Shown here piece by piece: positions 32,111 through 43,844 of a stretch of DNA of 64,000 bases. Below the pieces are notes generated by a model. The model saw only the letters and a list, made by a program, of their open reading frames with translations. It did not search any database and was not told the DNA's origin. Position 1 is the first letter of the stretch. The number at the start of each line of letters is the position of its first letter. The DNA is from Profundicola chukchiensis (GTDB lineage: Bacteria > Bacteroidota > Bacteroidia > Flavobacteriales > Weeksellaceae). The translations under genes and the position numbers were made by a program. The stretch covers positions 372,001 through 436,000 of the forward strand of contig NZ_JANAIE010000002.1 in assembly GCF_029664245.1 (NCBI RefSeq), written 5' to 3'.

Positions 32111-35053
32111 TTAAAAGTTAACATTTACACCAAAACTCCAAACTCTTGGTCTTGGATAAAAATTATTATCAATTCCACCAAAAACTTCTGGATCTAATCC
32201 TGAGTAATCTGTGAAGATAGCTACGTTATTAACTGATCCGAAAACTCGCATATCAACATTATTGATTAATCCTTCTGGCAATGTATAGCCCAAAGTAATA
32301 TTATCAATTTTGTAGAAAGAAGCATCTTCTAAATAATAGTCACTCATTAAAACTTCTTCCGTCATCGCTGTGAAGCCAGAATTAGCTAAATCACCTGCAA
32401 CGTTTCTAATGATACCATTTTCGAATAATCTTCCGGTGTATGCATTAGCCGAAACAGTGTTATTGTAAACATAGTTTCCTAAACTTGCTCTAGAAGCTAA
32501 AGAGAAATCAAAGTTTTTGTAGCTCATGCTGGTATTGATACCCATCGTTACATCAGCAAAAGGAGTCTTGCTAATATATCTATCGTCATCGTTGATTTGT
32601 CCGTCGCCGTTTCTATCAACTACCGCATTATCTATTGGGTTTCCGCTTTCGTCGTATACCTGTTGGTAAACATAGAACGCATTAGCGCCATAACCTTCTT
32701 GTTGTGTTTGAATTTGGTTACCTGTACCACCCGAGATTCCTCCAGTGTTGGTTGGTGTATTTAACTTAGTAATCTTGTTATCATTAAAGTTAACATTGTA
32801 ACCGATTTTCCAGTTAAATTCTTCTGCTTTAATTACATCATAATTTAATGCAAACTCAACTCCTTTGTTTTCCATGTCACCGAAGTTAGATTCGATAACG
32901 TTACCAAAGTTGGTGAATACATCAATTACAGTTGCAGCAATTAAATCTTCAGATTTTCTAATATAGAAATCAACATAACCATTTAATCTATTATTGAATA
33001 AACCATAGTCGATTGCGATATTGGTTGTATTACTAATCTCCCATCTTAAGTTGTCGTTATAAACGTTCGGTCTAACGGTTGGAATAAAGGCATCACCAAA
33101 ATGATAATAAGCACCTTGAGTGTTTCCAGAGTAGTTCAATAAGAATTTATAATCTCCTAAACCATTTACGTTACCAACTTTACCATAACCAGCTCTTAAT
33201 TTTAAAGTATTCAACCAAGGAATTCCATTAAAAGCATCTTCTTTATGCAAGTTCCAAGCAGCTGCTACTGAAGGGAAATAACCCCATCTATCATCTGGAT
33301 TTAATTTAGATGAAGCATCCGCTCTCAGGGTTGCAGTTAATAAGTATTTATCGCTTAAGTTAACACTTGCACGCCCAAAGAATGATTGTAAATTAGATCT
33401 CCAAGGAGTAGTTTTCTCTGGATTCTCATTACCATCTGAATAACGGATATAGTAATTAGTGTTTCTGTTATAGAAATCTTGATATGAATATCCACCAGTT
33501 AAAGAGAAGTTACTATTCTCAGCAAAATCTTTGTCATAAACCATATAGTAATCTAACAACTTGTTGATTCTAGCATTTGAATACTTACTGAAATCTCCAG
33601 CCCAACCTACTGTAGCAGAAGGGTGCATTTCTGATCTCTTAACTCTACCGTGAGAGTTTGTAACATCATATCCAACATTTAAAACAGCTGATAAACCATC
33701 TACCCAAGGCAAAGCATAATCAAACTTAGCATTAGAAATCAATCTTCTAACTTCTGAAGTATCATCTCTGTACTCTAACATCGATAACGGGTTCACGTTT
33801 ACCACATCACTCAATAAAGTATTTGTTCCTTCGCGATTCCAGTTCCAGAAAGAACCATCAGCATTGTAAATAGGTTTTGTTGGATCAAAGCTAATCGCTT
33901 GTCCAATCGCTCCTTTATCCGCAAATTGATTCTCGATATAAGAAGCTTTTGTGTTTAATTCAATTTTTAATGCATCATTGAATAATTTTGGAGACAAACT
34001 CAAAGCACCTGTATAACGATCCATTTGATCAGTTTTTAAGATACCCTCGTTTGTTGCATATCCCATAGACGCTCTAAACGGAACACCGTATGCTCCACCC
34101 ATAACGCTAAAGTCGTTGGTCCAACCAAATGCATTTTGGAAAATTTCTTTTTGCCAATCCGTGTTTTCTGAACCTAATTGAGCAATTTGACTTGCATTTC
34201 CATATTGGTTAACCCAATCTCTAACCTGATCACCTGTAAATACATCTACGTAATCAATCACTTCTGAGAAGGATACTTGTGAAGATAACTGATACTTAAG
34301 CGCTCCTGTTTTTCCTTTTTTAGTTTCAATAATGATAACACCATTACCACCACGAGAACCGTAGATGGCTGTTGCAGATGCATCTTTTAAAACAGAAATA
34401 CTAGCGATATCATTTGGGTTGATAGAGTTCAAAATGTTTCTTGAACCTCCTACTCCATTTTCGCTAATTGGCACACCATCGATAACGATTAAAGGCTCAG
34501 AGTTTAAAGATAAAGAACCAATACCACGAATTCTGATACTCTGACCTTCACCTGGAGCTCCACCTCCGGAAGTAATATTTACACCAGCTGATTTACCTTG
34601 AATCATTTGTTGTGCAGAAACCACAGGACCTTTATTAAAATCTTCTTCGGTTAGTAAATCCACCGAACCTGTTAAGTCACTTTTCTTAATAGCACCATAT
34701 CCAATAGCGACAACTGAACCAAGTTCAATTGCTCCAAGTTTATAGTCTTTAGTAATTCTAGCACCTTCTTGGTAAGCAAAAGAATCATTAGCCTCGCTAC
34801 CATCTATACCCAGTATTGAAAGCTGAATACTACCATCTACTGCATCTAATGCAGTTACCTCTAGCTCGTAATAACCATTGAAATCTGATTCAACTTCAAC
34901 ATCTCCGGCTCGAACCAATGCACTTGTCGCTGGAAAATCATTGGCATCTGTAATCGTTCCCTCAATAACCATCTGTGCTTGCACAAATGTGATAGAACCT
35001 ACCAATAAACAAACAGCCAAGGCATATTTCATAAAAATATTGCTCATGCTCAT
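32111..35053 (-). CDS. susC: SusC/RagA family TonB-linked outer-membrane transporter
   Basis: 980 aa. Signal peptide (ends FVQAQ), a carboxypeptidase-regulatory-like N-terminal domain (about 30-105), then the plug with SVVAIGYGAIKKSDLTGSV, IRGIGSLSLNSEPLIVIDGVPI and SISVLKDASATAIYGSRGGNGVIII. A 22-strand barrel ends in VNVNF. It imports oligosaccharides with SusD using TonB energy. First gene of susC-susD-susE-susF. An ATG at 35032 would give a more standard signal peptide. Confidence 0.97.
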   Translation of the reverse strand: MSMSNIFMKYALAVCLLVGSITFVQAQMVIEGTITDANDFPATSALVRAGDVEVESDFNGYYELEVTALDAVDGSIQLSILGIDGSEANDSFAYQEGARITKDYKLGAIELGSVVAIGYGAIKKSDLTGSVDLLTEEDFNKGPVVSAQQMIQGKSAGVNITSGGGAPGEGQSIRIRGIGSLSLNSEPLIVIDGVPISENGVGGSRNILNSINPNDIASISVLKDASATAIYGSRGGNGVIIIETKKGKTGALKYQLSSQVSFSEVIDYVDVFTGDQVRDWVNQYGNASQIAQLGSENTDWQKEIFQNAFGWTNDFSVMGGAYGVPFRASMGYATNEGILKTDQMDRYTGALSLSPKLFNDALKIELNTKASYIENQFADKGAIGQAISFDPTKPIYNADGSFWNWNREGTNTLLSDVVNVNPLSMLEYRDDTSEVRRLISNAKFDYALPWVDGLSAVLNVGYDVTNSHGRVKRSEMHPSATVGWAGDFSKYSNARINKLLDYYMVYDKDFAENSNFSLTGGYSYQDFYNRNTNYYIRYSDGNENPEKTTPWRSNLQSFFGRASVNLSDKYLLTATLRADASSKLNPDDRWGYFPSVAAAWNLHKEDAFNGIPWLNTLKLRAGYGKVGNVNGLGDYKFLLNYSGNTQGAYYHFGDAFIPTVRPNVYNDNLRWEISNTTNIAIDYGLFNNRLNGYVDFYIRKSEDLIAATVIDVFTNFGNVIESNFGDMENKGVEFALNYDVIKAEEFNWKIGYNVNFNDNKITKLNTPTNTGGISGGTGNQIQTQQEGYGANAFYVYQQVYDESGNPIDNAVVDRNGDGQINDDDRYISKTPFADVTMGINTSMSYKNFDFSLASRASLGNYVYNNTVSANAYTGRLFENGIIRNVAGDLANSGFTAMTEEVLMSDYYLEDASFYKIDNITLGYTLPEGLINNVDMRVFGSVNNVAIFTDYSGLDPEVFGGIDNNFYPRPRVWSFGVNVNF

Positions 35054-35260
35054 ATGTTATAATTTTAACATTTATTTTTTATCATTATGTATCAAATTTA
35101 ACAATTTAAAAACAAATAACAATGAAATAAATGTATATAATACACTTTAACAATATTATTGATATACAGCAGATTGCTATAACAAAGTGTACATAGTACA
35201 ATTCCTTAATTTTTCTATCCCACTAGGGAAAAAATTGTGAAATAGAAAAATTCATAAAAC

Positions 35261-35292
35261 AAAAAAAATCACCTCTCGCGAGGTGATTTTTT
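35261..35292 (-). terminator. Terminator after sucC
   Basis: Stem AAAATCACCTC / GAGGTGATTTT with a TCGC loop and flanking A and T runs, 23 nt after the sucC stop. It may work in both directions. Confidence 0.93.
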
Positions 35293-35314
35293 ATATTCTT
35301 AGTTTGCCTTTAAA

Positions 35315-36508
35315 TTAAGACAATACTTCTTTTACTTTAGTTGCTGCTTCTTCTAATGTAATTGCAGAGTGAACTTTTAATCCAGATCCGTCAATCATTT
35401 CTTTAGCTTCTACTGCGTTAGTTCCTTGTAATCTTACGATAATTGGAACTTTGATAGCATCTCCCATGTTTTTATAAGCATCGATAATACCTTGTGCTAC
35501 TCTATCACAACGCACAATACCACCGAAGATGTTTACTAAGATAGCATCAACATTATCATCTTTTAAGATAATTCTGAAAGCTTTCTCAACACGCTCAGCA
35601 TCTGCAGTACCACCAACGTCTAAGAAGTTGGCAGGACTACCACCAGCTTGCTTAATCATATCCATAGTTGCCATTGCAAGACCAGCTCCGTTTACCATAC
35701 AACCAACGTTTCCGTCTAGTTTAACGAAGTTTAATCCAGCTTCACCAGCTTCTACCTCTGTTGGGTCTTCTTCTCTTTTGTCTCTTAACTCAGCTAAATC
35801 TTTGTGACGGTACATTGCGTTGTCGTCTAAAGTAACTTTACTGTCAACCGCCATAATTTGGTTGTCAGAAGTTTTTAAAACTGGGTTAATTTCGAACATA
35901 GAAGCATCTGCACCTACGTAAGCGTTATATAATGAGTGAACAAATTTCACCATTTCTTTGAATGCTTGTCCGCTTAATCCTAAGTTGAAAGCAACTCTTC
36001 TTGCTTGGAATCCTTGTAATCCAACAGCAGGATCAATCTCCTCAGTGAAAATCTTATCTGGCATAGATTCAGCTACCTCTTCGATATCCATTCCACCTTC
36101 TGGAGAGTACATAATCATATTAGTTCCGTTCGCACGGTTTAGTAATACAGATACGTAAAACTCTTCTGGCTCGCTATCACCTGGATAATAAACATCCTCT
36201 GCAACTAATACCTGATGAACTTTTTTACCTTCAGCAGAAGTTTGTGGCGTCACCAACTGCATTCCAATAATGTCATTAGCAATTTCCTTAACTTGATCTA
36301 AATTCTTTGCCAACTTAACGCCGCCTCCTTTTCCGCGTCCTCCAGCATGAACTTGTGCTTTGATCACATGCCAGCCTGTTTCGGTTTCTTCGGTTAATTT
36401 TTTAGCTGCTTCCACAGCTTCTTCTGGTGTTGTTGCAACTATTCCGCGCTGAATTTTAACGCCATATTTACTCAACAATTCTTTGCCTTGATATTCGTGA
36501 AGATTCAT
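35315..36508 (-). CDS. sucC: Succinyl-CoA synthetase beta subunit (ADP-forming)
   Basis: 397 aa, full length. ATP-grasp N-terminal domain (MNLHEYQGKELLSKYGV; HAGGRGKGGGVKLA) and C-terminal CoA-ligase domain (NIFGGIVRCDRVAQGII). TCA-cycle step succinyl-CoA to succinate with ATP formation, working with SucD, which is not in this window. The simplest ancestral order would place it divergent from radA. Confidence 0.97.
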   Translation of the reverse strand: MNLHEYQGKELLSKYGVKIQRGIVATTPEEAVEAAKKLTEETETGWHVIKAQVHAGGRGKGGGVKLAKNLDQVKEIANDIIGMQLVTPQTSAEGKKVHQVLVAEDVYYPGDSEPEEFYVSVLLNRANGTNMIMYSPEGGMDIEEVAESMPDKIFTEEIDPAVGLQGFQARRVAFNLGLSGQAFKEMVKFVHSLYNAYVGADASMFEINPVLKTSDNQIMAVDSKVTLDDNAMYRHKDLAELRDKREEDPTEVEAGEAGLNFVKLDGNVGCMVNGAGLAMATMDMIKQAGGSPANFLDVGGTADAERVEKAFRIILKDDNVDAILVNIFGGIVRCDRVAQGIIDAYKNMGDAIKVPIIVRLQGTNAVEAKEMIDGSGLKVHSAITLEEAATKVKEVLS

Positions 36509-36535
36509 GAATGTTTAAAATTTTAAGATTTCCTA

Positions 36536-36543
36536 CAAAAATA
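36536..36543 (-). promoter_or_regulatory. -7 promoter element for sucC
   Basis: Minus-strand TATTTTTG, 28 nt before the sucC ATG. Confidence 0.65.
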
Positions 36544-36646
36544 GCCATTCTCATGAGAATTTACATTTTAAATCCTAAAAATTATTGAAATTGGACTTAA
36601 ATTATACTTATTATTATTCAATATTTTCTTTAAATAGGTACTATCA

Positions 36647-36687
36647 AAAACTCATATCATTGCTAAATGGCAAAGTCAAAGACTATT
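36647..36687 (+). repeat. radA 5'-end repeat, copy 1 (shortest)
   Basis: A 41-bp copy of the radA promoter-start core, two mismatches from the intact radA copy at 39102-39142. It includes ATGGCAAAGTCAAAGACTATT, the first seven radA codons. Its -7 box reads TATCATTG instead of TATCTTTG, so it is probably inactive. Its 3' end overlaps the last codons of the 202-aa gene. It lies closest to sucC. Confidence 0.85.
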
Positions 36688-37291
36688 GAATATAGACTCC
36701 TTTCGCCGAAAACATGATAGGAGGATATGCCAATTTTTTCCAAAAGGCATCAGGAAGTTTTGGTCGCATAATTAATATATCTTCTGTGTCTAAACAGGAA
36801 AATTTAACCTTACCCTGCGGTATTGCATCATCAATGTAAATTGCAATAAACACTTCGGAATGAGCGGGAATTAAAATTTTATCATCAAATTCTATTCGAT
36901 TTTCACCTCTTTTGAAAACTGATAAAGGTATCTTCTTTAAATCTTCATCTATCCTATTTTTGGGCATTCCATATTCGCCATCCCACAACTGAAAGACGAT
37001 ATTAGCTTTATCCCAATTCATTTTACGGAAAAATAAACTTATTTCAGTAATATATAAGTCAGAAGCTTCATTATTTTTTAAGCTTAAAGCATATTCACTT
37101 TGATGGCTAAAGCCAATTGCATTACCATTTTTCTTCTGGGCATCTATGCTCGCTTTTTCGACATTAGAAATGAAAACACTATCTAAAACAATTGTGTCAT
37201 TTATCTGAGCTACACCATTTAATGAAAATAAAATTGTAAAAAAGGAGAACATAAATGTTCTCCTATTGCTATTTAAAAACAAGTTTAACAT
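36683..37291 (-). CDS. Exported protein of unknown function (cassette 1)
   Basis: 202 aa from the ATG at 37291, which overlaps the stop of the 79-aa gene (ATGTTAA) and implies coupling; an ATG 3 codons upstream is also possible. Signal-like segment FMFSFFTILFSLNGVAQ, cut before INDT. The mature part looks beta-rich: SLFFRKMNWDKANIVFQLWDGEYGMPKN and IPAHSEVFIAIYIDD recall beta-sandwich domains seen in Bacteroidota surface proteins. No catalytic motif. The last codons (VYIQ-stop) lie in radA repeat copy 1. Part of the accessory insert between sucC and radA. Confidence 0.7.
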   Translation of the reverse strand: MLNLFLNSNRRTFMFSFFTILFSLNGVAQINDTIVLDSVFISNVEKASIDAQKKNGNAIGFSHQSEYALSLKNNEASDLYITEISLFFRKMNWDKANIVFQLWDGEYGMPKNRIDEDLKKIPLSVFKRGENRIEFDDKILIPAHSEVFIAIYIDDAIPQGKVKFSCLDTEDILIMRPKLPDAFWKKLAYPPIMFSAKGVYIQ

Positions 37292-37524
37292 CCTATCCAA
37301 TTACCTGTTGGCTCGCTGGATCCAATTGGTACCCATAAAAAATAAAATTGTTGAAATTCTGCTTGTTGATAAACACCAGGAGATACTTGCATACAAGGTC
37401 CATAGGTTGTTTCCGTTCCAATAAATTTACTTTCATTTGAAGATGAATCATTTCCAGCTAAACTAAAACTAAAGGTAATAATAAAGAATAAAGAAAAGAA
37501 ACTTCTGGTAATACTTTTTGACAT
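37285..37524 (-). CDS. Small exported two-cysteine protein (cassette 1)
   Basis: 79 aa from the ATG at 37524 (an in-frame ATG at 37605 would bury the signal peptide and lies in the shared repeat). Signal peptide MSKSITRSFFSLFFIITFSFSLAG. The mature ~55 residues have exactly two Cys (TYGPCMQV and the last residue in GNWIGC), suited to one disulfide. Unrecognised. It leads an operon with the 202-aa gene and reads away from radA repeat copy 2. Could be a small secreted effector, pheromone-like or structural peptide. Confidence 0.65.
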   Translation of the reverse strand: MSKSITRSFFSLFFIITFSFSLAGNDSSSNESKFIGTETTYGPCMQVSPGVYQQAEFQQFYFLWVPIGSSEPTGNWIGC

Positions 37525-37549
37525 AATAAAATTTTTTAATTGTTTAAGG

Positions 37550-37785
37550 AAACAAAAATCTAAAACCAAATTTTTTTTCGATAGAACAAATAAAGTTATG
37601 AACAATTAATGCAAAGCGTATTATTCATCACAAATAGTCAGCGCAAATTATTTCTCCTTTTCCTAAAACTCATATCTTTGTGAAATGGCGAAGTCAAAGA
37701 CTATTTATTATTGTCAGAATTGTGGTGCACAACACGCTACTTGGATGGGAAAATGTTCCCAATGTAAAGAATGGAACACGATAAT
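37550..37785 (+). repeat. radA 5'-end repeat, copy 2 (long)
   Basis: About 235 bp matching 38974-39222: the divergent intergenic region plus the radA start. The coding part is about 89% identical to radA by my count, and its first 48 bases are identical. Relative to copy 3 it lacks 6 nt shortly upstream of the -7 box. It carries the shared 41-bp core at 37665-37705. Confidence 0.9.
37673..37680 (+). promoter_or_regulatory. -7 element in radA repeat copy 2
   Basis: Intact TATCTTTG, 5 nt before the stub ATG, the same as in front of radA itself. The stub may still be transcribed. Confidence 0.55.
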
Positions 37786-37807
37786 TGTTATGATTGTACA
37801 AATGTAA
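37685..37807 (+). pseudogene. radA 5' fragment encoding the zinc finger only
   Basis: A 40-codon frame, ATG to TAA. Codons 1-33 match RadA except codon 28 (K for G), and the frame then runs into unrelated sequence. All four zinc-finger cysteines (C10, C13, C24, C27) are kept. Ten codons differ from radA at about 11 bases, and nine of the ten changes are synonymous. This is the pattern of a formerly functional divergent allele, not of a drifting duplicate. It could still make a 40-aa zinc-finger peptide. Confidence 0.8.
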
Positions 37808-37933
37808 AAGTAAGTTTTCAATATGAAAATTTAACAGTTAAAGATTTGTACGATTTTTTTTTATAAATATTTGAGGATTAAAAATTATAGATATGTACAG
37901 AATGTCTTAATCAAGTATAAGATCTTTATTAAA

Positions 37934-38032
37934 TCATTTTTGATTTTTTTTAAATAAAGAAACTATAAATGGAGCAACAAGACCACCAATTATAATTGAC
38001 ACAATTAATATTGTAATTTCAATTTTACTCAT
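37934..38032 (-). CDS. 32-aa single-helix membrane peptide (cassette 2)
   Basis: ATG at 38032, one base after the stop of the 305-aa gene; TGA at 37934-37936. The peptide begins MSKIEITILIVSIIIGGLV and ends in a basic tail (SLFKKNQK), so it is one transmembrane helix with a positive cytoplasmic end. The tight spacing suggests co-translation with the exported protein upstream. Role unknown; an immunity or membrane-active peptide is possible. Confidence 0.6.
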   Translation of the reverse strand: MSKIEITILIVSIIIGGLVAPFIVSLFKKNQK

Positions 38033-38033
38033 A

Positions 38034-38951
38034 TTACCTTGTTATTAATTTTGCAAGTCTACCCACCGCACCTGTTGAACCAGAAACAGCACCGCCTACT
38101 GCAGCCCAACCTACCATACCCCAATCTACACTTCCTGTCAACACGTATTGACCAGATGCCGCAATACCACCACTTATCACTGCGCCTGCTATATCTAAAC
38201 CTACCCATGGTGCTATTAGCAAACTGTTTTCTTTTAATATAACATCTCCATTCGGACCATTACTGGCTAAAATAAAATTAGGTTCAGGTAATATATAAGT
38301 AACTGAATTTTCATTTTTCACCCACCATTCCATAGATTTTATGGATATAGCTAGTGTTATTGCCAAAACATGACCAGCATTTTCATTTTTAGCATATTTT
38401 TTTGAGTTAAATTCGTCTTTATAACTGTTTAATTCTTTTAAAATTTCTGATGCTGTATTCAGCCCATCTATGTTATTATCTATAAGCTCTTTGATTTTAT
38501 TAAGCGTTGAAAGTTCATATTCATCAATTAATTCATTTCTTAAGGAATTAGATAGTAATGTAGAATAAGTCGGTTCATTATCTTTCAATCCAGCACTTTC
38601 ATTTAATGAACTTATTGACTTAAACGCTTTATTACTTAAATCTTTATAAGCATAAGCACCTTCGTTTAAATAATTATAGAAATTATCCTTCACCATAAAG
38701 TACTTATACTTTTCTGAGTTTGAAATATCTAAATTATATTCTGCGTAAAATTCAATTAGTAATCTATTTACATAATCTACATTTTCATCAACATTTTTTG
38801 AAAACTTAGATTCGTCAAGGTTGGATAGAACATAATCTAAAGCTTTGTTGTGTAAATCACCACGATTAAAATAGTCTTCTACTTTAATTTGACTATATCC
38901 AACATTTAATAATAAAACTGTGGCTAATAAGCCTAAAAAATACTTTTTCAT
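38034..38951 (-). CDS. Exported protein with Gly-rich hydrophobic C terminus (cassette 2)
   Basis: 305 aa. Signal peptide (ends NVGYSQ). Residues ~22-200 are charged and mostly helical (DLHNKALDYVLSNLDESKF). The last 59 residues (247-305) are rich in Gly/Ala/Val with GxxxG-like spacing (GAVISGGIAASG, GWAAVGGAVSGSTGAVG) and end in basic RLAKLITR. This resembles membrane-inserting tails of bacteriocin-like or pore-forming proteins, but no family is recognised. It leads an operon with the 32-aa membrane peptide, in the insert next to radA, divergent from it. Confidence 0.75.
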   Translation of the reverse strand: MKKYFLGLLATVLLLNVGYSQIKVEDYFNRGDLHNKALDYVLSNLDESKFSKNVDENVDYVNRLLIEFYAEYNLDISNSEKYKYFMVKDNFYNYLNEGAYAYKDLSNKAFKSISSLNESAGLKDNEPTYSTLLSNSLRNELIDEYELSTLNKIKELIDNNIDGLNTASEILKELNSYKDEFNSKKYAKNENAGHVLAITLAISIKSMEWWVKNENSVTYILPEPNFILASNGPNGDVILKENSLLIAPWVGLDIAGAVISGGIAASGQYVLTGSVDWGMVGWAAVGGAVSGSTGAVGRLAKLITR

Positions 38952-38973
38952 AATAGTTTAAATTAATATGAAA

Positions 38974-39222
38974 AACAAAAATCTAAAATCTAAAAACAAA
39001 TTTATTTTTAGATAAAACAAATAAAGTTATGAACAATTATTTCGAAACACATTGTTCATCACAAATAATCAGCGCAAATTATTTCTCCTTACTCTTTTCC
39101 TAAAACTCATATCTTTGCTAAATGGCGAAGTCAAAGACTATTTATTATTGTCAGAATTGTGGTGCACAACATGCTACATGGATGGGAAAGTGCTCACAAT
39201 GTGGAGAGTGGAATACTATTGT
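38974..39222 (+). repeat. radA 5'-end repeat, copy 3 (intact radA)
   Basis: Same unit as copy 2, but here it continues into full-length radA. The shared 41-bp core is at 39102-39142. Similarity starts close to the start codon of the divergent 305-aa gene, so the divergent cassette promoter region is part of the unit. Confidence 0.9.
39110..39117 (+). promoter_or_regulatory. -7 promoter element for radA
   Basis: TATCTTTG, 5 nt before the radA ATG, so the radA mRNA should have little or no leader. Confidence 0.65.
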
Positions 39223-40477
39223 AGAAGAAGTTGTGGAGAAGAATGCAAAGAAAACTCCATGGCAAGAAGACAATACCAAAAAACCTGTTTTGTTTAATAT
39301 TAAGGATATTCCCGAAACTAGTGAAACGAGAATCATTACGCATAATGATGAGCTAGATCGTGTTTTGGGAGGTGGAATTGTTTTAGGTTCTGTAATTTTA
39401 TTGGGTGGAGAACCAGGAATCGGAAAATCAACCCTATTATTACAAGTTGCTTTAAGCCTTAAACATTTAAAGGTTTTATATGTTTCTGGTGAGGAAAGTG
39501 CTTCTCAAATTAAATTACGCGCAGAGAGAATTGGTATCGAAACAGAAGATTGCTATATCTTAACCGAAACTCAAACACAAAAGATTTTTAAACAAGCCAA
39601 AAGCATACAACCTCAGATTTTGATTATTGATTCTATTCAAACGCTACAATCTGAATATGTAGAATCTTCGCCAGGCAGTGTTTCTCAAATTAGAGAATGC
39701 ACTTCTGAACTAATAAAATTTGCAAAAACAACAAATGTTCCAGTTATTTTGGTAGGACACATCACCAAAGAAGGTTCGATTGCAGGACCTAAAATCTTGG
39801 AACACATGGTAGATGTTGTGCTGCAATTCGAAGGCGAAAGAAATCATTTATATAGATTGCTACGATCGCAAAAAAACAGATTTGGATCCACCGCGGAATT
39901 GGGTATTTATGAAATGCAGGGTTCTGGATTGAGAGAAGTTTCAAATCCCTCTGAAGTATTGATTTCCCCAAAAGACACTCCTCTCAGTGGAAATGCGATT
40001 GCAGCTACTTTAGAAGGAATTCGTCCCATGTTGATTGAGATTCAAGCATTGGTGAGCACAGCGGTATATGGAACACCTCAGCGTTCTACCACAGGATTTG
40101 ACATTAAGAGATTAAATATGCTACTCGCTGTTTTGGAGAAACGAGCTGGTTTTCAGCTTGGATCTAAAGACGTTTTCTTGAACATTACGGGTGGAATTCG
40201 GGTAGATGATCCAGCGATTGATTTGGCGGTTTTATGCGCTATTTTATCATCTTATGAAAATGAGCCTTTACCCGATAATTGTTGCTTTGCCGGAGAAATA
40301 GGTTTGAGCGGAGAAGTTCGTCCGGTGAATAGAATAGAAAAACGAATTATAGAAGCCGAAAAATTGGGTTATGATGTAATTTTTATTTCAAAACATAACA
40401 AAGTTAAAACTTCTAATTTTCAGATTCGGGTAGAAATGCTAGGAACCGTTGGGGATTTGTATCGAATGCTGTTTTGA
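39122..40477 (+). CDS. radA: DNA repair protein RadA
   Basis: 451 aa, full length. C4 zinc finger (C10, C13, C24, C27), RecA-like core with Walker A GGEPGIGKST (about 93-102), the RadA-specific KNRFG motif near 250, and a C-terminal Lon-protease-like domain. RadA is a hexameric helicase that promotes branch migration and D-loop extension in recombination. Its 5' end is the third copy of the repeated unit. The gene appears intact despite the rearrangements upstream. Confidence 0.97.
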   Translation: MAKSKTIYYCQNCGAQHATWMGKCSQCGEWNTIVEEVVEKNAKKTPWQEDNTKKPVLFNIKDIPETSETRIITHNDELDRVLGGGIVLGSVILLGGEPGIGKSTLLLQVALSLKHLKVLYVSGEESASQIKLRAERIGIETEDCYILTETQTQKIFKQAKSIQPQILIIDSIQTLQSEYVESSPGSVSQIRECTSELIKFAKTTNVPVILVGHITKEGSIAGPKILEHMVDVVLQFEGERNHLYRLLRSQKNRFGSTAELGIYEMQGSGLREVSNPSEVLISPKDTPLSGNAIAATLEGIRPMLIEIQALVSTAVYGTPQRSTTGFDIKRLNMLLAVLEKRAGFQLGSKDVFLNITGGIRVDDPAIDLAVLCAILSSYENEPLPDNCCFAGEIGLSGEVRPVNRIEKRIIEAEKLGYDVIFISKHNKVKTSNFQIRVEMLGTVGDLYRMLF

Positions 40478-40509
40478 GTTTTAAATTCTGAATTTATATC
40501 AAACAGTTG

Positions 40510-40668
40510 TAGATGCGAAGCGCAATAGGGATAGTAGCAAGTAGCCCACAGCTAAAGCACGCAAACAAAAAGAGGCACAAAAGAGTGGAGTCCCTTAGGA
40601 CAAACTCCTTTTGTGCCTACTTTTTTGTAAGTGATTTTGCGAGGACTACTGCGGATAGCCCGCAATTG
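40510..40668. repeat. Composite intergenic element with long hairpin, type A
   Basis: Between converging radA and hutG. Left flank has GCGCAATAGGGATAGTAGC and AGTAGCCC; right flank has GGACTACTGCGGATAGCCCG. Between them is a hairpin with arms AGGCACAAAAG (40573-40583) and CTTTTGTGCCT (40608-40618), an inner GTCC-CTTA-GGAC stem, and a T run at 40621. The flank-hairpin-flank design recurs at 53045-53230. The hairpin may serve as the radA/hutG terminator. Confidence 0.55.
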
Positions 40669-40679
40669 CCCTAATTATA

Positions 40680-41624
40680 TTATAAATTATGCACCATTTC
40701 TGACACCATATGTGCCGCCAAACGGGCCGTTCTATTGTCGATATCGTATTCTGGGTTATACTCGGCAACATCCATTAACCTCACCTTATTTGACCCAAGA
40801 ATATGTTTTAGAATTCCTTTCACTTGGAAAGCATTTAGTCCATTAGCCGCTGGAGCACTAACACCAGGTGCATAGGCTGCATCGAACACATCCATGTCCA
40901 AGCTCAGATATATAGCATCTACTTTCTCTAAGAAAGCATCGATAGCAATCGACCATGCACGTCTATCTTCGTGAATTTGATCTGCTAAAACATAATGTGC
41001 ACCTAGTTTCTCTGCTCTTTCGAAAATTGCTTTTGTATTAGCCGTTTTCTGAACTCCTAGACACATATAATTGAACTCTCTATTATTCTTTTCACAGAAT
41101 TGAGACATCTCGTAAAAACCTGTCCCTGAATTGGTATCTGGATGCGGTAAACGCAAATCAAAATGCGCATCAATGTTAATGATTCCTATCTTTTTGTATT
41201 TATCACTAAGCGCCAAAAAGTTACCATATGCCACTTCATGACCTCCTCCTAAAACTAGTGGATAGGTTTTTTTAGCGATTAAATTTTTAAGAATTTGCAC
41301 TTGCTCATCGCGTGCTTCTTCTAAATTATTACCTACACATACCACGTTTCCGTAATCGTATAAAGCGTTAACATCTGAATCTTGCTGCGGCAAAATAGAT
41401 AGCATTTTTCTAATGGCATCTGGCGCCTTGGCTGCTCCTACTCTACCTTTATTTCTTCTAACACCTTCGTCTGAAGCAAATCCTAAAAAGACAACGGATT
41501 TTTCTAAATAAGCTTGATGCTCTTTAGGGAATTCCTTGACAAGTTGATGCCATCTTTTTCCAAGCATTCCATCTTCTACATCCACACGACCGTGCCAATG
41601 CGATTTATCGAAAGGTTTAATCAT
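40680..41624 (-). CDS. hutG: Formimidoylglutamase (arginase family)
   Basis: 314 aa. Binuclear manganese motifs of the ureohydrolase fold: GGGHEVAYG, NIDAHFDLR and SLDMDVFDAAYAPGVSAP. It hydrolyses N-formimidoyl-L-glutamate to glutamate and formamide in histidine breakdown; HutG is favoured over arginase by overall similarity to Bacteroidota formimidoylglutamases. No other hut gene is nearby. Confidence 0.88.
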   Translation of the reverse strand: MIKPFDKSHWHGRVDVEDGMLGKRWHQLVKEFPKEHQAYLEKSVVFLGFASDEGVRRNKGRVGAAKAPDAIRKMLSILPQQDSDVNALYDYGNVVCVGNNLEEARDEQVQILKNLIAKKTYPLVLGGGHEVAYGNFLALSDKYKKIGIINIDAHFDLRLPHPDTNSGTGFYEMSQFCEKNNREFNYMCLGVQKTANTKAIFERAEKLGAHYVLADQIHEDRRAWSIAIDAFLEKVDAIYLSLDMDVFDAAYAPGVSAPAANGLNAFQVKGILKHILGSNKVRLMDVAEYNPEYDIDNRTARLAAHMVSEMVHNL

Positions 41625-41642
41625 AGTTTTCTAATTTTAGCC

Positions 41643-41650
41643 CAAATTTA
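41643..41650 (-). promoter_or_regulatory. -7 promoter element for hutG
   Basis: Minus-strand TAAATTTG, 19 nt before the hutG ATG. Confidence 0.65.
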
Positions 41651-41705
41651 ACGAAATGCTTTGTATTTTAAACACAATTCTAAGAAGTGTTGTGTAAATT
41701 AAATA

Positions 41706-41858
41706 TTAAGCATTATCACGTGGCTGGTGTTTTTCTTTTCTTTGCTCTACCTGTGGATTCACTTGTTTTCCATCGGTAGCTTTCTCGTTGATTGCCTTTT
41801 CTTCTAGGCTTTTGTTTACTTTTCTTTGTTCTGGGTTAACGTTCTTATCCTTATTCAT
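41706..41858 (-). CDS. 50-aa highly charged protein
   Basis: A short frame from ATG 41858 to TAA 41706. Entirely hydrophilic (Lys, Glu, Asn, Gln, Asp), with no Cys, Trp, Tyr or Phe. It has a weak internal repeat: NVNPEQRKVNKSLEEK and QVNPQVEQRKEK. Such composition is unlikely in random AT-rich DNA. Function unknown; likely soluble and disordered. Confidence 0.5.
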   Translation of the reverse strand: MNKDKNVNPEQRKVNKSLEEKAINEKATDGKQVNPQVEQRKEKHQPRDNA

Positions 41859-42012
41859 AATAATATATTTAACCTAAAGATCTCAACAACTGTTCCGAGA
41901 TAATTTACTGTGCATGAATGCTTAACTCTAAGCAGTAAATGAAATTTATCATATTTATAGAAAACCTGATGGTATATAGTTTGAATCTTTTTATACAAAA
42001 AATTATATACCT

Positions 42013-42579
42013 ATGAGAAATTTTAAATTATTGACCTTATTTGCGATTATGTTTAGTTTGTTAGTAAGATGTACTACTGATGATGAAGGAAATCCTGCGG
42101 TTCAATCTCCGATTGATATCCCGACAAAGATTAACAACATCGAAATTCCTTTTGCGACTATAGATGGAACAACTTTGCCTGGCCCTATCAACATTAGACT
42201 TAATGTTGATTTTGATGAAGCCATTGGTGATGCAGTGCCAGGTTTAGGCTTGAACAATGTAGCATCGGCTGAGTTAGTTGACTTTTATGTAGAATTAGAT
42301 GATAGTTCTTTTGTTGGAGATTTAACAGCTATTGAGGACATGGACATCTATGTAAAAGCTAACGGACCAGATTTGGAAGAAATTAAAGTTGCTGAAGTTA
42401 GAGGCAACACCGCAGCAGATAGAATTAATTTTGAGGTGGTTTCTAATGAGGATCTAATCGATTATTTTAAGGCGGATGATTTATATTTAGTATTAAGAGA
42501 TATTAAAGCTGGTGATAGTTCTTTAACAACTTTCACCATTAGTGCCACGCCAGTATGGAAAGCTAGTTTCCAGTTATAG
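42013..42579 (+). CDS. Putative lipoprotein, unknown function
   Basis: 188 aa. Signal segment ends in SLLVRC (C20), an imperfect lipobox because of Arg before Cys, but the following TTDDEGN matches the acidic export signal of Bacteroidota lipoproteins. The rest is a predicted beta-sandwich (IRLNVDFDEAIG...VDFYVELDDSSFVGDL...SATPVWKASF). No known domain. Monocistronic, with strong terminator. Confidence 0.75.
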   Translation: MRNFKLLTLFAIMFSLLVRCTTDDEGNPAVQSPIDIPTKINNIEIPFATIDGTTLPGPINIRLNVDFDEAIGDAVPGLGLNNVASAELVDFYVELDDSSFVGDLTAIEDMDIYVKANGPDLEEIKVAEVRGNTAADRINFEVVSNEDLIDYFKADDLYLVLRDIKAGDSSLTTFTISATPVWKASFQL

Positions 42580-42597
42580 AATTTTTGTTTTTAGAAA

Positions 42598-42640
42598 TGA
42601 AAAGCCGACGTTTTCTGACGTCGGCTTTTCAATTTTAAAT
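42598..42640. terminator. Bidirectional terminator between lipoprotein gene and mnmA
   Basis: GC-rich stem TGAAAAGCCGACGT / ACGTCGGCTTTTCA followed by ATTTT. It lies 10 bp from the mnmA stop. Confidence 0.95.
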
Positions 42641-42650
42641 CTATTTTTCA

Positions 42651-43844
42651 TTACTGAATCACACCTGATCCAATCAATTCTTCTCCATCATACCAAGCAA
42701 CAAATTGCCCCGAAGTGATGGCACTTGGCGCTTCGTCGAACTCCACATACAATCCATTATCGAATTGATGTAAAGTTGCTTTTCTCAAAGGCTGACGATA
42801 ACGAATTCTCGCCATATACTCTTTGGTTTCACCTGGTTTTAATGCCAAATCTTCTCTCACCCAATGCAATTCTGCATTAGATACAAATAACGCTTTCTTG
42901 AACAAGCCTGGATGATCTGCGCCTTGACCTGCGTAGATTATATTCTTTTCAACGTCAGTAGAAATCACAAATAATGGTTCTACCATACCGCCAACGCCTA
43001 AACCTTTTCTTTGTCCAACCGTAAAGAAATGAGCTCCATTATGTTTTCCAACGATTTTGCCGTCATTCGCATCATAAGTATAATCCTTAGCAAGGAAAGC
43101 TAATCTTTCTTTTTCAGTTTCGAACTCAGTTTTTTGTGGTAAACCTTGATAGAAATCTTTTTTAATTTCTATGATAACACCATCTTTCGGTTTTAATTGC
43201 TGTTGTAGAAAGTCAGGTAAACTCACTTTTCCGATAAAGCATAAACCTTGTGAATCTTTTTTATCTGCTGTAACTAATTCTTGCTCTTTGGCAATTTTTC
43301 TCACTTCAGATTTATCTAAATGCCCAATTGGGAACAAAGCTTTTGAAAGTTGCTCTTGACTTAATTGACACAAGAAATAAGACTGATCTTTATTTTTATC
43401 GTGCCCAGCCAAAAGTTGATAAATTTCTTTACCATCTTTTTCAATAATTCCTTTTTGGCAATAATGTCCTGTAGCTACATAATCAGCCCCAAGTTCTAAG
43501 GCTGTTTTTAAGAAAATATCGAACTTGATTTCACGATTACACAAAACATCAGGGTTTGGAGTTCTACCAATCTGATATTCGTTGAACATATAATCAACGA
43601 TTCGTTCTTTATAAATCTCGCTTAAATCAATTACCTGAAATGGAATTCCTAGTTTTTCTGCTACCAACAAAGCATCTGCACTATCCTCAATCCATGGACA
43701 TTCATCATCTAAGATCACTGATGAATCATTCCAATTTCTCATGAATAGTCCGATCACATCATAACCTTGCTGCTGCAATAAATATGCGGATACACTACTA
43801 TCTACACCTCCCGAAAGTCCTATGACTACTTTTTTACCTTTCAC
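42651..43844 (-). CDS. mnmA: tRNA-specific 2-thiouridylase MnmA
   Basis: 397 aa from GTG at 43844. PP-loop [14 protein letters not shown], catalytic Cys in [13 protein letters not shown] and [13 protein letters not shown], plus the C-terminal beta domain. It adds sulfur to U34 of tRNA-Lys, -Glu and -Gln. A TTG at 43859 adds five residues but falls almost at the transcription start implied by the -7 box. GTG gives the usual N terminus ([13 protein letters not shown]) and a short leader. There is no ATG in this region. Confidence 0.96.

What the first reader, a model, noticed from the sequence alone, without database searches (positions are those of the whole stretch)
37934..38951. Two-gene module: exported protein with Gly-zipper tail plus 32-aa membrane peptide
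The 305-aa protein has a signal peptide, a helical body and a 59-residue Gly/Ala/Val-rich tail that could insert in membranes. One base after its stop begins a 32-aa single-helix peptide with a basic end, too short for normal gene finding. Spacing and topology recall toxin-immunity or bacteriocin-type pairs. No family is recognised, so this is a candidate undescribed system.
Basis: partly seen in the sequence, partly recalled or inferred. Interest (0 to 1): 0.68.

Follow-up and report, generated by a model that had tools for sequence, protein, structure and literature searches.

The report
Bacteriocin-like toxin with membrane immunity peptide
A bacterium carries a small inserted gene pair that looks like a membrane-attacking toxin plus a tiny membrane peptide that protects its maker, and related pairs recur in distant branches of the same phylum although the family libraries searched do not describe them.

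Summary
Confirmed, and more than chance. The exported 305-aa protein (38034-38951, -) belongs to a family with no convincing match in Pfam, NCBIfam, PHROGs or PADLOC. Most members show a secretion signal (often a lipobox), a GxxHNxxL motif, an SxxYW/WW motif and a C-terminal Gly/Ala-rich tail, predicted here as a helical hairpin. Of 20 core genes 19 have a 32-138-aa hydrophobic ORF directly downstream, against 5 of 142 and 7 of 71 control genes. In a more distant set it is 8 of 19, two of them weak; eight of the partnerless genes form one clade. The 32-aa frame has a homologue with a coding-type substitution pattern.

The cassette is an insert at the 5' end of radA: two displaced radA 5' remnants lie beside it, and a congener has the empty site. 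A distant member repeats this geometry at dusB. Others sit in arrays, on a likely 3.3-kb plasmid, or beside a MobB gene.

Best reading: a membrane-inserting, bacteriocin-like toxin with a transmembrane immunity peptide. Killing and immunity are inferred, untested.

The parts
38034..38951 (-). 305-aa exported protein, candidate toxin: signal peptide, helical body, helical-hairpin tail
   Evidence: ORF; homologues at 54%, 35-36% and 26% identity; AF2 model; no Pfam hit at E<=1, no NCBIfam hit near cutoff
38037..38213 (-). 59-residue Gly/Ala/Val-rich C-terminal tail (residues 247-305), predicted two-helix hairpin
   Evidence: columns S206, W210, D253 and G256 (window numbering) kept in 90% or more of 36 rows
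37934..38032 (-). 32-aa single-TM basic-tailed peptide, candidate immunity peptide
   Evidence: 1 nt after the stop; a small hydrophobic partner in 19 of 20 core genes; 50% identity to the L038 partner with coding-type substitution pattern; G16 invariant in the five short partners
38952..39121 (.). divergent promoter region between the toxin gene and radA (the copy in use)
   Evidence: sequence; part of the direct repeat
39122..40477 (+). radA-like DNA repair gene (intact), at whose 5' end the cassettes are inserted
   Evidence: Pfam AAA_25, ATPase/KaiC, Zn-ribbon, ChlI; orthologues at 86% and 85% in congeners; the name RadA is recalled from this architecture
37510..37782 (+). displaced relic of the radA promoter and first ~33 codons (copy 2)
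   Evidence: 83% over 283 columns to 38939-39219; alignment with congeners
36647..36693 (+). second, shorter relic of the radA start (copy 3)
   Evidence: 91% over 47 nt to 39102-39148
36683..37300 (-). 205-aa exported protein, part of the older cassette next to the same radA site; function unknown
   Evidence: ORF; no Pfam hit at E<=1 and no NCBIfam hit; one weak relative in 197 genomes
37285..37524 (-). 79-aa exported protein of the older cassette (ATG start at 37524)
   Evidence: ORF listed from an upstream TTG; no Pfam or NCBIfam hit
35315..36508 (-). sucC-like gene, left border of the insertion hotspot
   Evidence: ATP-grasp_2 and Ligase_CoA; same neighbour of radA in both congeners

Best explanation
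A bacteriocin-like toxin-immunity pair. The 305-aa protein is exported by Sec (in several relatives probably as a lipoprotein). Its helical body carries a C-terminal two-helix Gly/Ala-rich hairpin that inserts into and permeabilises the inner membrane of a neighbouring competitor. The 32-aa peptide is a single transmembrane helix, probably N-out/C-in by the positive-inside rule, that sits in the producer's inner membrane and neutralises the hairpin, plausibly by helix-helix packing through its small-xxx-G-xxx-small face. The pair travels as a cassette. It entered this genome next to radA by recombination anchored in the shared divergent promoter and radA 5' end, leaving the old radA start as a relic, as an older cassette had done before. 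SHOWN by sequence: the family, the pairing, the predicted hairpin, the relics, the empty site in a congener. INFERRED: export, toxicity, immunity, membrane target, helix packing, the recombination route.
For: Conserved pairing: 19 of 20 core genes have a hydrophobic 32-138-aa ORF starting -17 to +39 nt from the stop; three of the 20 (two in L036, one in L071) were added by eye from arrays, and without them it is 16 of 17. Controls: 5 of 142 (after removing one family member found among 6 of 143) and 7 of 71. Partners differ in length, number of hydrophobic stretches and sequence while the toxin motifs stay, as immunity proteins do; of the 20 partners examined, 19 are net positive in the last 10 residues. 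The five short single-TM partners share G16; 4 of these 5 carry small-xxx-G-xxx-small, 0 of 15 longer ones. Arrays of different modules: L036 with three members, L071 with two. Mobile context: L066 is a 3,377-bp contig with a 77-bp exact end overlap and a Rep_3 initiator; L037 is next to a MobB gene above cutoff. Direct repeats flank 8 of 20 core and 4 of 19 distant genes, against 1 of 71 control genes (L066's end overlap not counted; inside arrays the repeats lie between modules). AF2 hairpin. Precedents: CDZ, with glycine-zipper proteins and an inner-membrane immunity protein with three predicted TMs (PMC5380434, passages), and TelE (PMC10434224, passages).
Against: No experiment. A clade of 8 rows (SH-aLRT 96) plus L107 and L114 lack any adjacent small membrane ORF, and L118 has only a weak one; L108, a near-copy of L107, lacks it too. 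L074 lacks one as well (its Gly-rich tail seems out of frame). The window's tail has no excess of small-xxx-small over its composition. Among the eight proteins of the neighbourhood scanned no secretion gene was found. The fold matches nothing solved (no Foldseek match at E<=0.001), so there is no structural link to known pore formers. The window protein aligns weakly with a PADLOC model, LeoBC (E 4.7e-5, 20.7 bits, residues 52-303), and L036_243 with LeoB (E 0.056); I take this as shared helical, hydrophobic make-up, but did not follow it. The family is sparse: with the single-sequence query 12 of 320 genomes of the taxonomic family matched at E<=0.01, of which I accept 4 including the window's own.
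Confidence: 0.66

Rival explanations
1. An envelope lipoprotein pair that is not a weapon: the large protein is a structural or stress-related Gly-rich outer-membrane component, and the small peptide is its inner-membrane helper or assembly partner.
For: Weak hits of a few of 36 members to Gly-zipper envelope models (YMGG in 4, best E 0.0071; Omp in 2; 2TM in 2). One clade lacks the partner.
Against: Patchy, mobile, arrayed, diversified; partners vary from one to several hydrophobic stretches without common sequence. A housekeeping role predicts vertical conservation; both congeners lack the gene by single-sequence search, and a weak profile hit in G001 (E 5e-4) is a 160-aa lipoprotein without a Gly-rich tail.
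Confidence: 0.16
2. The small peptide is the toxin (a type-I-like membrane peptide) and the large exported protein is its accessory or an unrelated neighbour.
For: The size and shape of the 32-aa peptide resemble type I toxin peptides such as Fst or Ldr (recalled, not tested).
Against: Partners reach 138 aa and several hydrophobic stretches; the constant element is the large protein. Partners overlap or start within 11 nt of the large gene in 15 of the 19 core cases. No antisense RNA was looked for.
Confidence: 0.07
3. The large protein is a secreted signal or adhesin precursor whose tail is cut off, with the peptide as membrane sensor or processing partner.
For: Small AraC-type regulator genes lie upstream in L065 (HTH_18 just below cutoff) and L070 (above cutoff).
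Against: No protease, exporter or histidine kinase among the eight proteins scanned at the window; the tail is among the conserved parts.
Confidence: 0.06
4. The 32-aa ORF is a chance frame and only the large gene is real.
For: 32-aa ORFs are common by chance (64 ORFs of 30 aa or more overlap 34000-43000).
Against: Positional conservation 19 of 20 against 5 of 142 and 7 of 71; coding-type substitutions against L038.
Confidence: 0.05

Closest known systems
CDZ (CdzC/CdzD-CdzI) of Caulobacter crescentus
   Same: Gly-zipper proteins held on the producer surface, with a small inner-membrane immunity protein (PMC5380434, passages)
   Different: CdzC/D are 84-86 aa and use a type I secretion system; here mostly 208-316 aa with Sec signal or lipobox (read by eye), one large protein, no exporter among the eight window proteins scanned
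SitA/SitI lipoprotein toxins of myxobacteria
   Same: Lipoprotein toxin with constant N-terminal part, adjacent immunity gene in an operon, often on mobile DNA (PMC8546572, passages)
   Different: SitA C-termini are nucleases reaching the cytoplasm after outer-membrane exchange; here a hairpin tail and TM partners
TelE-TipE (T7SSb LXG effector with C-terminal glycine zipper)
   Same: Large helical protein with C-terminal Gly-rich, probably pore-forming end and a dedicated immunity protein (PMC10434224, passages)
   Different: T7SS-secreted in a Gram-positive; TipE has no TM and is the third gene downstream
Class IIb/IIc bacteriocins with small TM immunity proteins
   Same: Gly-rich membrane helices and short membrane immunity proteins (recalled); one relative (L112) matches Bacteriocin_IIc below cutoff (18.1 of 27.1 bits)
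   Different: Those are short peptides with GG leaders (recalled); here the active part would be the tail of a ~300-aa exported protein
Effector-immunity module gain by homology-facilitated illegitimate recombination in Vibrio T6SS
   Same: New module added using one homologous anchor, older genes pushed aside (proposed in PMC5361080, passages)
   Different: Here the anchor is the start of a housekeeping gene (radA, dusB) and the relic is that gene's 5' end

Membership tests
CDZ system | Small (84-86 aa) glycine-zipper proteins secreted by an adjacent type I system | tested here: not met
   305 aa with an N-terminal hydrophobic signal; no exporter among the eight proteins scanned (not every ORF of the window was scanned)
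CDZ system | Membrane immunity protein encoded beside the toxin | tested here: inconclusive
   A TM peptide is adjacent and conserved; protection not tested
SitA/SitI | Lipoprotein signal | tested here: inconclusive
   Lipobox-like Cys in L038, L044, L040, L065, L066 and others by eye; the window protein has none
SitA/SitI | C-terminal nuclease | tested here: not met
   The tail is a Gly/Ala-rich helical hairpin; no nuclease domain in Pfam
Class II bacteriocin (Bacteriocin_IIc) | Profile match above cutoff with GG leader | tested here: not met
   The window protein has no Pfam hit at E<=1; one member of 36 matches at E 0.0026, below cutoff
Bacteriocin-type toxin-immunity pair (functional class) | Toxic protein neutralised by the neighbouring gene product | not testable with these tools
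   Needs bench work
Bacteriocin-type toxin-immunity pair (functional class) | Conserved adjacent, diversified small membrane partner | tested here: met
   19 of 20 core genes against 5 of 142 and 7 of 71 controls; partners 32-138 aa; but only 8 of 19 in the more distant set
LeoBC (PADLOC) and phage families (PHROGs) | Profile match | tested here: inconclusive
   Window protein: LeoBC E 4.7e-5, 20.7 bits, profile positions 293-503 of 601; no PHROG for it. Of 36 members, 13 PHROGs were each matched by one, best E 5.8e-5

The most novel reading that the evidence does not exclude
A Bacteroidota family of cell-surface or secreted toxins whose warhead is a C-terminal Gly/Ala-rich helical hairpin. 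Its smallest members use one of the shortest immunity proteins known (to my recollection), a 32-aa single helix that disarms the hairpin inside the membrane by small-residue helix packing. The cassettes spread as modules that recombine into the 5' ends of housekeeping genes and rebuild the gene start each time, stacking up in arrays.
Probability: 0.4. Interest if true: 0.72.

Novelty: new variant of a known kind. Interest (0 to 1): 0.57.

Why it matters
If true, it adds a family of contact-type or secreted bacteriocins for Bacteroidota, a phylum with few described ones (recalled), together with partner genes as short as 32 aa that gene finders tend to skip. A one-helix immunity peptide would be a minimal, directly testable model of how a membrane helix neutralises a membrane-inserting hairpin. 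The repeated radA and dusB relics suggest how such modules enter chromosomes without a recombinase of their own.

Tried and rejected
Database searches that gave nothing: plasmids by tblastn with three different members, viral contigs with the 305-aa query, genome contigs with the single query (the alignment A1 then found 5 loci), the PDB by sequence profile (best E 0.32), the PDB by fold (no match at E<=0.001, best Z 5.3, within what helical models give by chance).

Rejected hits: the weak matches to 2,200-2,700-aa proteins (G186, G078, G106, G019, G196) and to G112, G013 (C68) and G243 (C2). The last two are an AraC-type regulator and a glycosyltransferase by eye, and G196 an adhesin-like protein; G112 looks like an Rhs end by eye; the other four were not read. 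Most of the 84 'hits' cover only the signal peptide and N-terminus; the tally of 84 is not used. I kept 19 loci by hand at about E<1e-6 (L078-L094 and two more from G096; refetched as L104-L122). The weak G001 hit was read and dropped. From I did not use L056, L057, L059, L060, L062 and L063; L056 was not read.

Counts: the core 20 are 17 search hits plus three by eye (L036_268, L036_243, L071_304). In the distant 19 two near-identical pairs (L107/L108, L118/L121) are counted separately; L118 and L121 count only through a TTG-started 45-aa ORF that I regard as doubtful, so 6 of 19 is the strict number. In the tree (36 rows) L108, L121 and L074 were left out, and L118 was labelled as lacking the ORF; most deep forks are weakly supported.

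Control choices: one search used genes of 150 aa or more in 20 sources that include family loci; one of its 6 hits was a family member, hence 5 of 142. One search used 71 genes in 20 stretches from 18 genomes that carry family members, 60-100 kb away from them. The hydrophobicity threshold was 1.9 in the first control and 1.7 in the second; at 1.9 the core count is 18 of 20 (L036_306 scores 1.74). Stretch lengths and distance to contig ends differ between family and control loci, so the repeat comparison is rough.

Considered and dropped: integrase-type insertion (none seen by eye near the site; not searched further). A Campbell-type single crossover of a circle instead of one-sided recombination is not excluded.

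Papers: PMC5380434, PMC10434224, PMC8546572 and PMC5361080 were read as passages only; PMC5562445, PMC6671954 and PMC6957408 were seen only in search listings. No described match to this family was seen in the rows listed by the six paper searches; most subscription papers and preprints are not held.

Full report
What is there. The coordinates are right. On the minus strand a 305-aa ORF (38034-38951) is followed after one base by a 32-aa ORF (37934-38032). They lie between sucC- and radA-like genes. The large protein has a hydrophobic start, a helical body and a 59-residue Gly/Ala/Val-rich tail. AlphaFold2 with an alignment of six sequences gives mean pLDDT 79 and pTM 0.80: helices over 24-212, a weak linker, and a hairpin of helices at 248-272 and 277-292. 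Strict GxxxG is not enriched in this tail over its composition, so the zipper label is loose for this member.

A family. A single-sequence search of 320 genomes of the family gave 12 at E<=0.01, of which I accept four including the window's own. Profiles then found members in an order sample (3 of 395 genomes at E<=0.001), in genome contigs including Marinifilum (5 loci), in a phylum sample (16 of 395 genomes at E<=0.01, some unrelated) and again in the family (19 loci kept after discarding hits to signal peptides). Named carriers are Chryseobacterium sp. MAG JAPUEB01, C. taichungense DSM 17453, Bacteroidetes isolate SZAS-80 and two Marinifilum. That the window's family is Weeksellaceae follows from C. 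taichungense being in it. An alignment of 36 members keeps S206, W210, D253 and G256 (window numbering) in at least 90% of rows; the consensus shows GxxHNxxL near the N-terminus. The libraries do not describe it: the window protein has no Pfam hit at E<=1; over 36 members the best Pfam E is 3.8e-4 and the commonest weak hits cover at most 4 members, mostly Gly-zipper models and DUF6861; NCBIfam was asked with ten members and gave nothing near cutoff; PADLOC gave a weak LeoBC alignment (E 4.7e-5); PHROGs only single-member hits.

The small partner. In the 20 core genes a hydrophobic ORF of 32-138 aa starts -17 to +39 nt from the stop in 19; without three genes added by eye it is 16 of 17. Control genes give 5 of 142 (one family member removed from 6 of 143) and 7 of 71. 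In the more distant set of 19 genes it is 8, two of them weak. On the tree of 36 members the genes without a partner cluster: 3 changes against 9.6 in shuffles; 8 of the 11 form one clade with SH-aLRT 96, all from the window's taxonomic family, and 25 of 36 have a partner. So the partner is the rule in the window's part of the family (10 of 10 rows, branch support 91) and is missing mainly in one branch. The 32-aa frame behaves as coding: against the 37-aa partner in L038 it is 50% identical, with codon-position identities 0.53, 0.78 and 0.44 and pN 0.35 against pS 0.67 (32 codons, a small sample; against the L036 partner the contrast is weak, pN 0.50, pS 0.61). The five short partners share a glycine (G16) in the middle of the helix; four of the five have a small-xxx-G-xxx-small face and none of 15 longer ones does.

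How it got here. The region from the first codons of the toxin gene through the divergent promoter to about codon 33 of radA is repeated at 37510-37782 (83% over 283 columns) and, for 47 nt, at 36647-36693. Between the two relics lie a 79-aa and a 205-aa exported gene. Congener G001 has only about 330 bp between sucC and radA, the empty site. Congener G002 has an OmpA-like gene there, and a duplicated radA 3' end beside a Uma2-like gene (names by eye) on the other side of radA. The simplest story is two successive insertions, each anchored in the radA start. Related loci show the same kind of scar: at dusB in L119 a 144-bp copy of the gene start (92%) lies on the far side of the module; in L072 a 639-bp piece of a HAD-phosphatase gene flanks the module. 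Counting all flanking direct repeats of at least 60 bp and 75%: 8 of 20 core genes (in 6 loci) and 4 of 19 distant genes, against 1 of 71 controls; L066's 77-bp end overlap is an assembly sign of circularity and is left out. Modules also occur as arrays (L036, L071), on a likely 3.3-kb Rep_3 plasmid (L066) and next to a MobB gene (L037).

Mechanism. The anatomy fits a membrane-attacking toxin with a membrane immunity partner. Shown: pairing, tail, predicted hairpin, mobility, diversification of the partner. Inferred: export, killing, protection, and the helix-packing idea. The nearest tested precedents are CDZ, whose Gly-zipper proteins kill by contact and whose immunity protein sits in the inner membrane (PMC5380434, passages), and TelE, a large protein with a Gly-rich C-terminal end (PMC10434224, passages). 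SitA shows that lipoprotein toxins with immunity operons on mobile DNA exist in Gram-negatives (PMC8546572, passages). Gain of a module with one homologous anchor has been proposed for Vibrio effector-immunity genes (PMC5361080, passages). By the defining features tested, this family is a member of none of the named toxin systems.

Against it. No function was tested. A branch of the family lacks the partner, which could mean a distant immunity gene, a different target or no toxicity at all. The fold matches nothing solved, and Z-values of this size are common for helical models. The weak LeoBC alignment was not followed.

Verdict. A real, conserved pair in a family that the libraries searched do not describe, of a known general kind (bacteriocin-type toxin and immunity), with an unusually small partner and a clear insertion scar.

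Noticed in passing
36683-37524: An older cassette at the same radA site: a 205-aa and a 79-aa exported protein, both without a Pfam or NCBIfam hit; the 205-aa one has one weak relative (E 6.7e-5) in 197 genomes.
   Followed up: partly
L034:1821-2802: In a congener the radA 3' end is duplicated (97% over 175 bp) beside a Uma2-like gene (by eye), so both ends of radA seem to receive inserts.
   Followed up: partly
L119:2835-5165: A distant family member sits between intact dusB and a duplicated dusB 5' end, the same geometry as at radA, followed by two exported genes (160 and 193 aa) in place of a small TM ORF.
   Followed up: yes
L036:4747-10303: Array of three family members (268, 243, 306 aa) with different small TM partners, a 203-aa exported protein with a 65-aa membrane ORF, two further small membrane ORFs (62, 73 aa) that could be orphan immunity genes, and repeated upstream DNA up to 98% identical.
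   Followed up: partly
L065:3528-6438: A 632-bp repeat (92%) with a small AraC-like HTH gene lies before the toxin and again before a 65-aa peptide with a GG-leader-like start (MEEIEGG, read by eye; no Pfam hit).
   Followed up: partly
L066:1-3377: Likely complete small plasmid (77-bp exact end overlap) with a Rep_3 initiator, a short HTH-like ORF (by eye) and the toxin pair. L067 (5,407 bp) has a 54-bp 98% end repeat and may be circular too.
   Followed up: partly
window 38034-38951, residues 52-303: Weak alignment with the PADLOC model LeoBC (E 4.7e-5, 20.7 bits), and of the L036 243-aa member with LeoB (E 0.056).
   Followed up: no
L005, L007-L010: Weak alignment of the tail with a Gly-rich segment of proteins that look or may be Rhs (E about 2e-3 to 3e-3; only L005 was read); perhaps only composition.
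   Followed up: no
L074:5578-6309: A family member whose Gly/Ala-rich tail seems to lie out of frame (207-aa ORF without tail; antisense Pro/Ala-rich ORF beyond it) and which has no adjacent partner.
   Followed up: no
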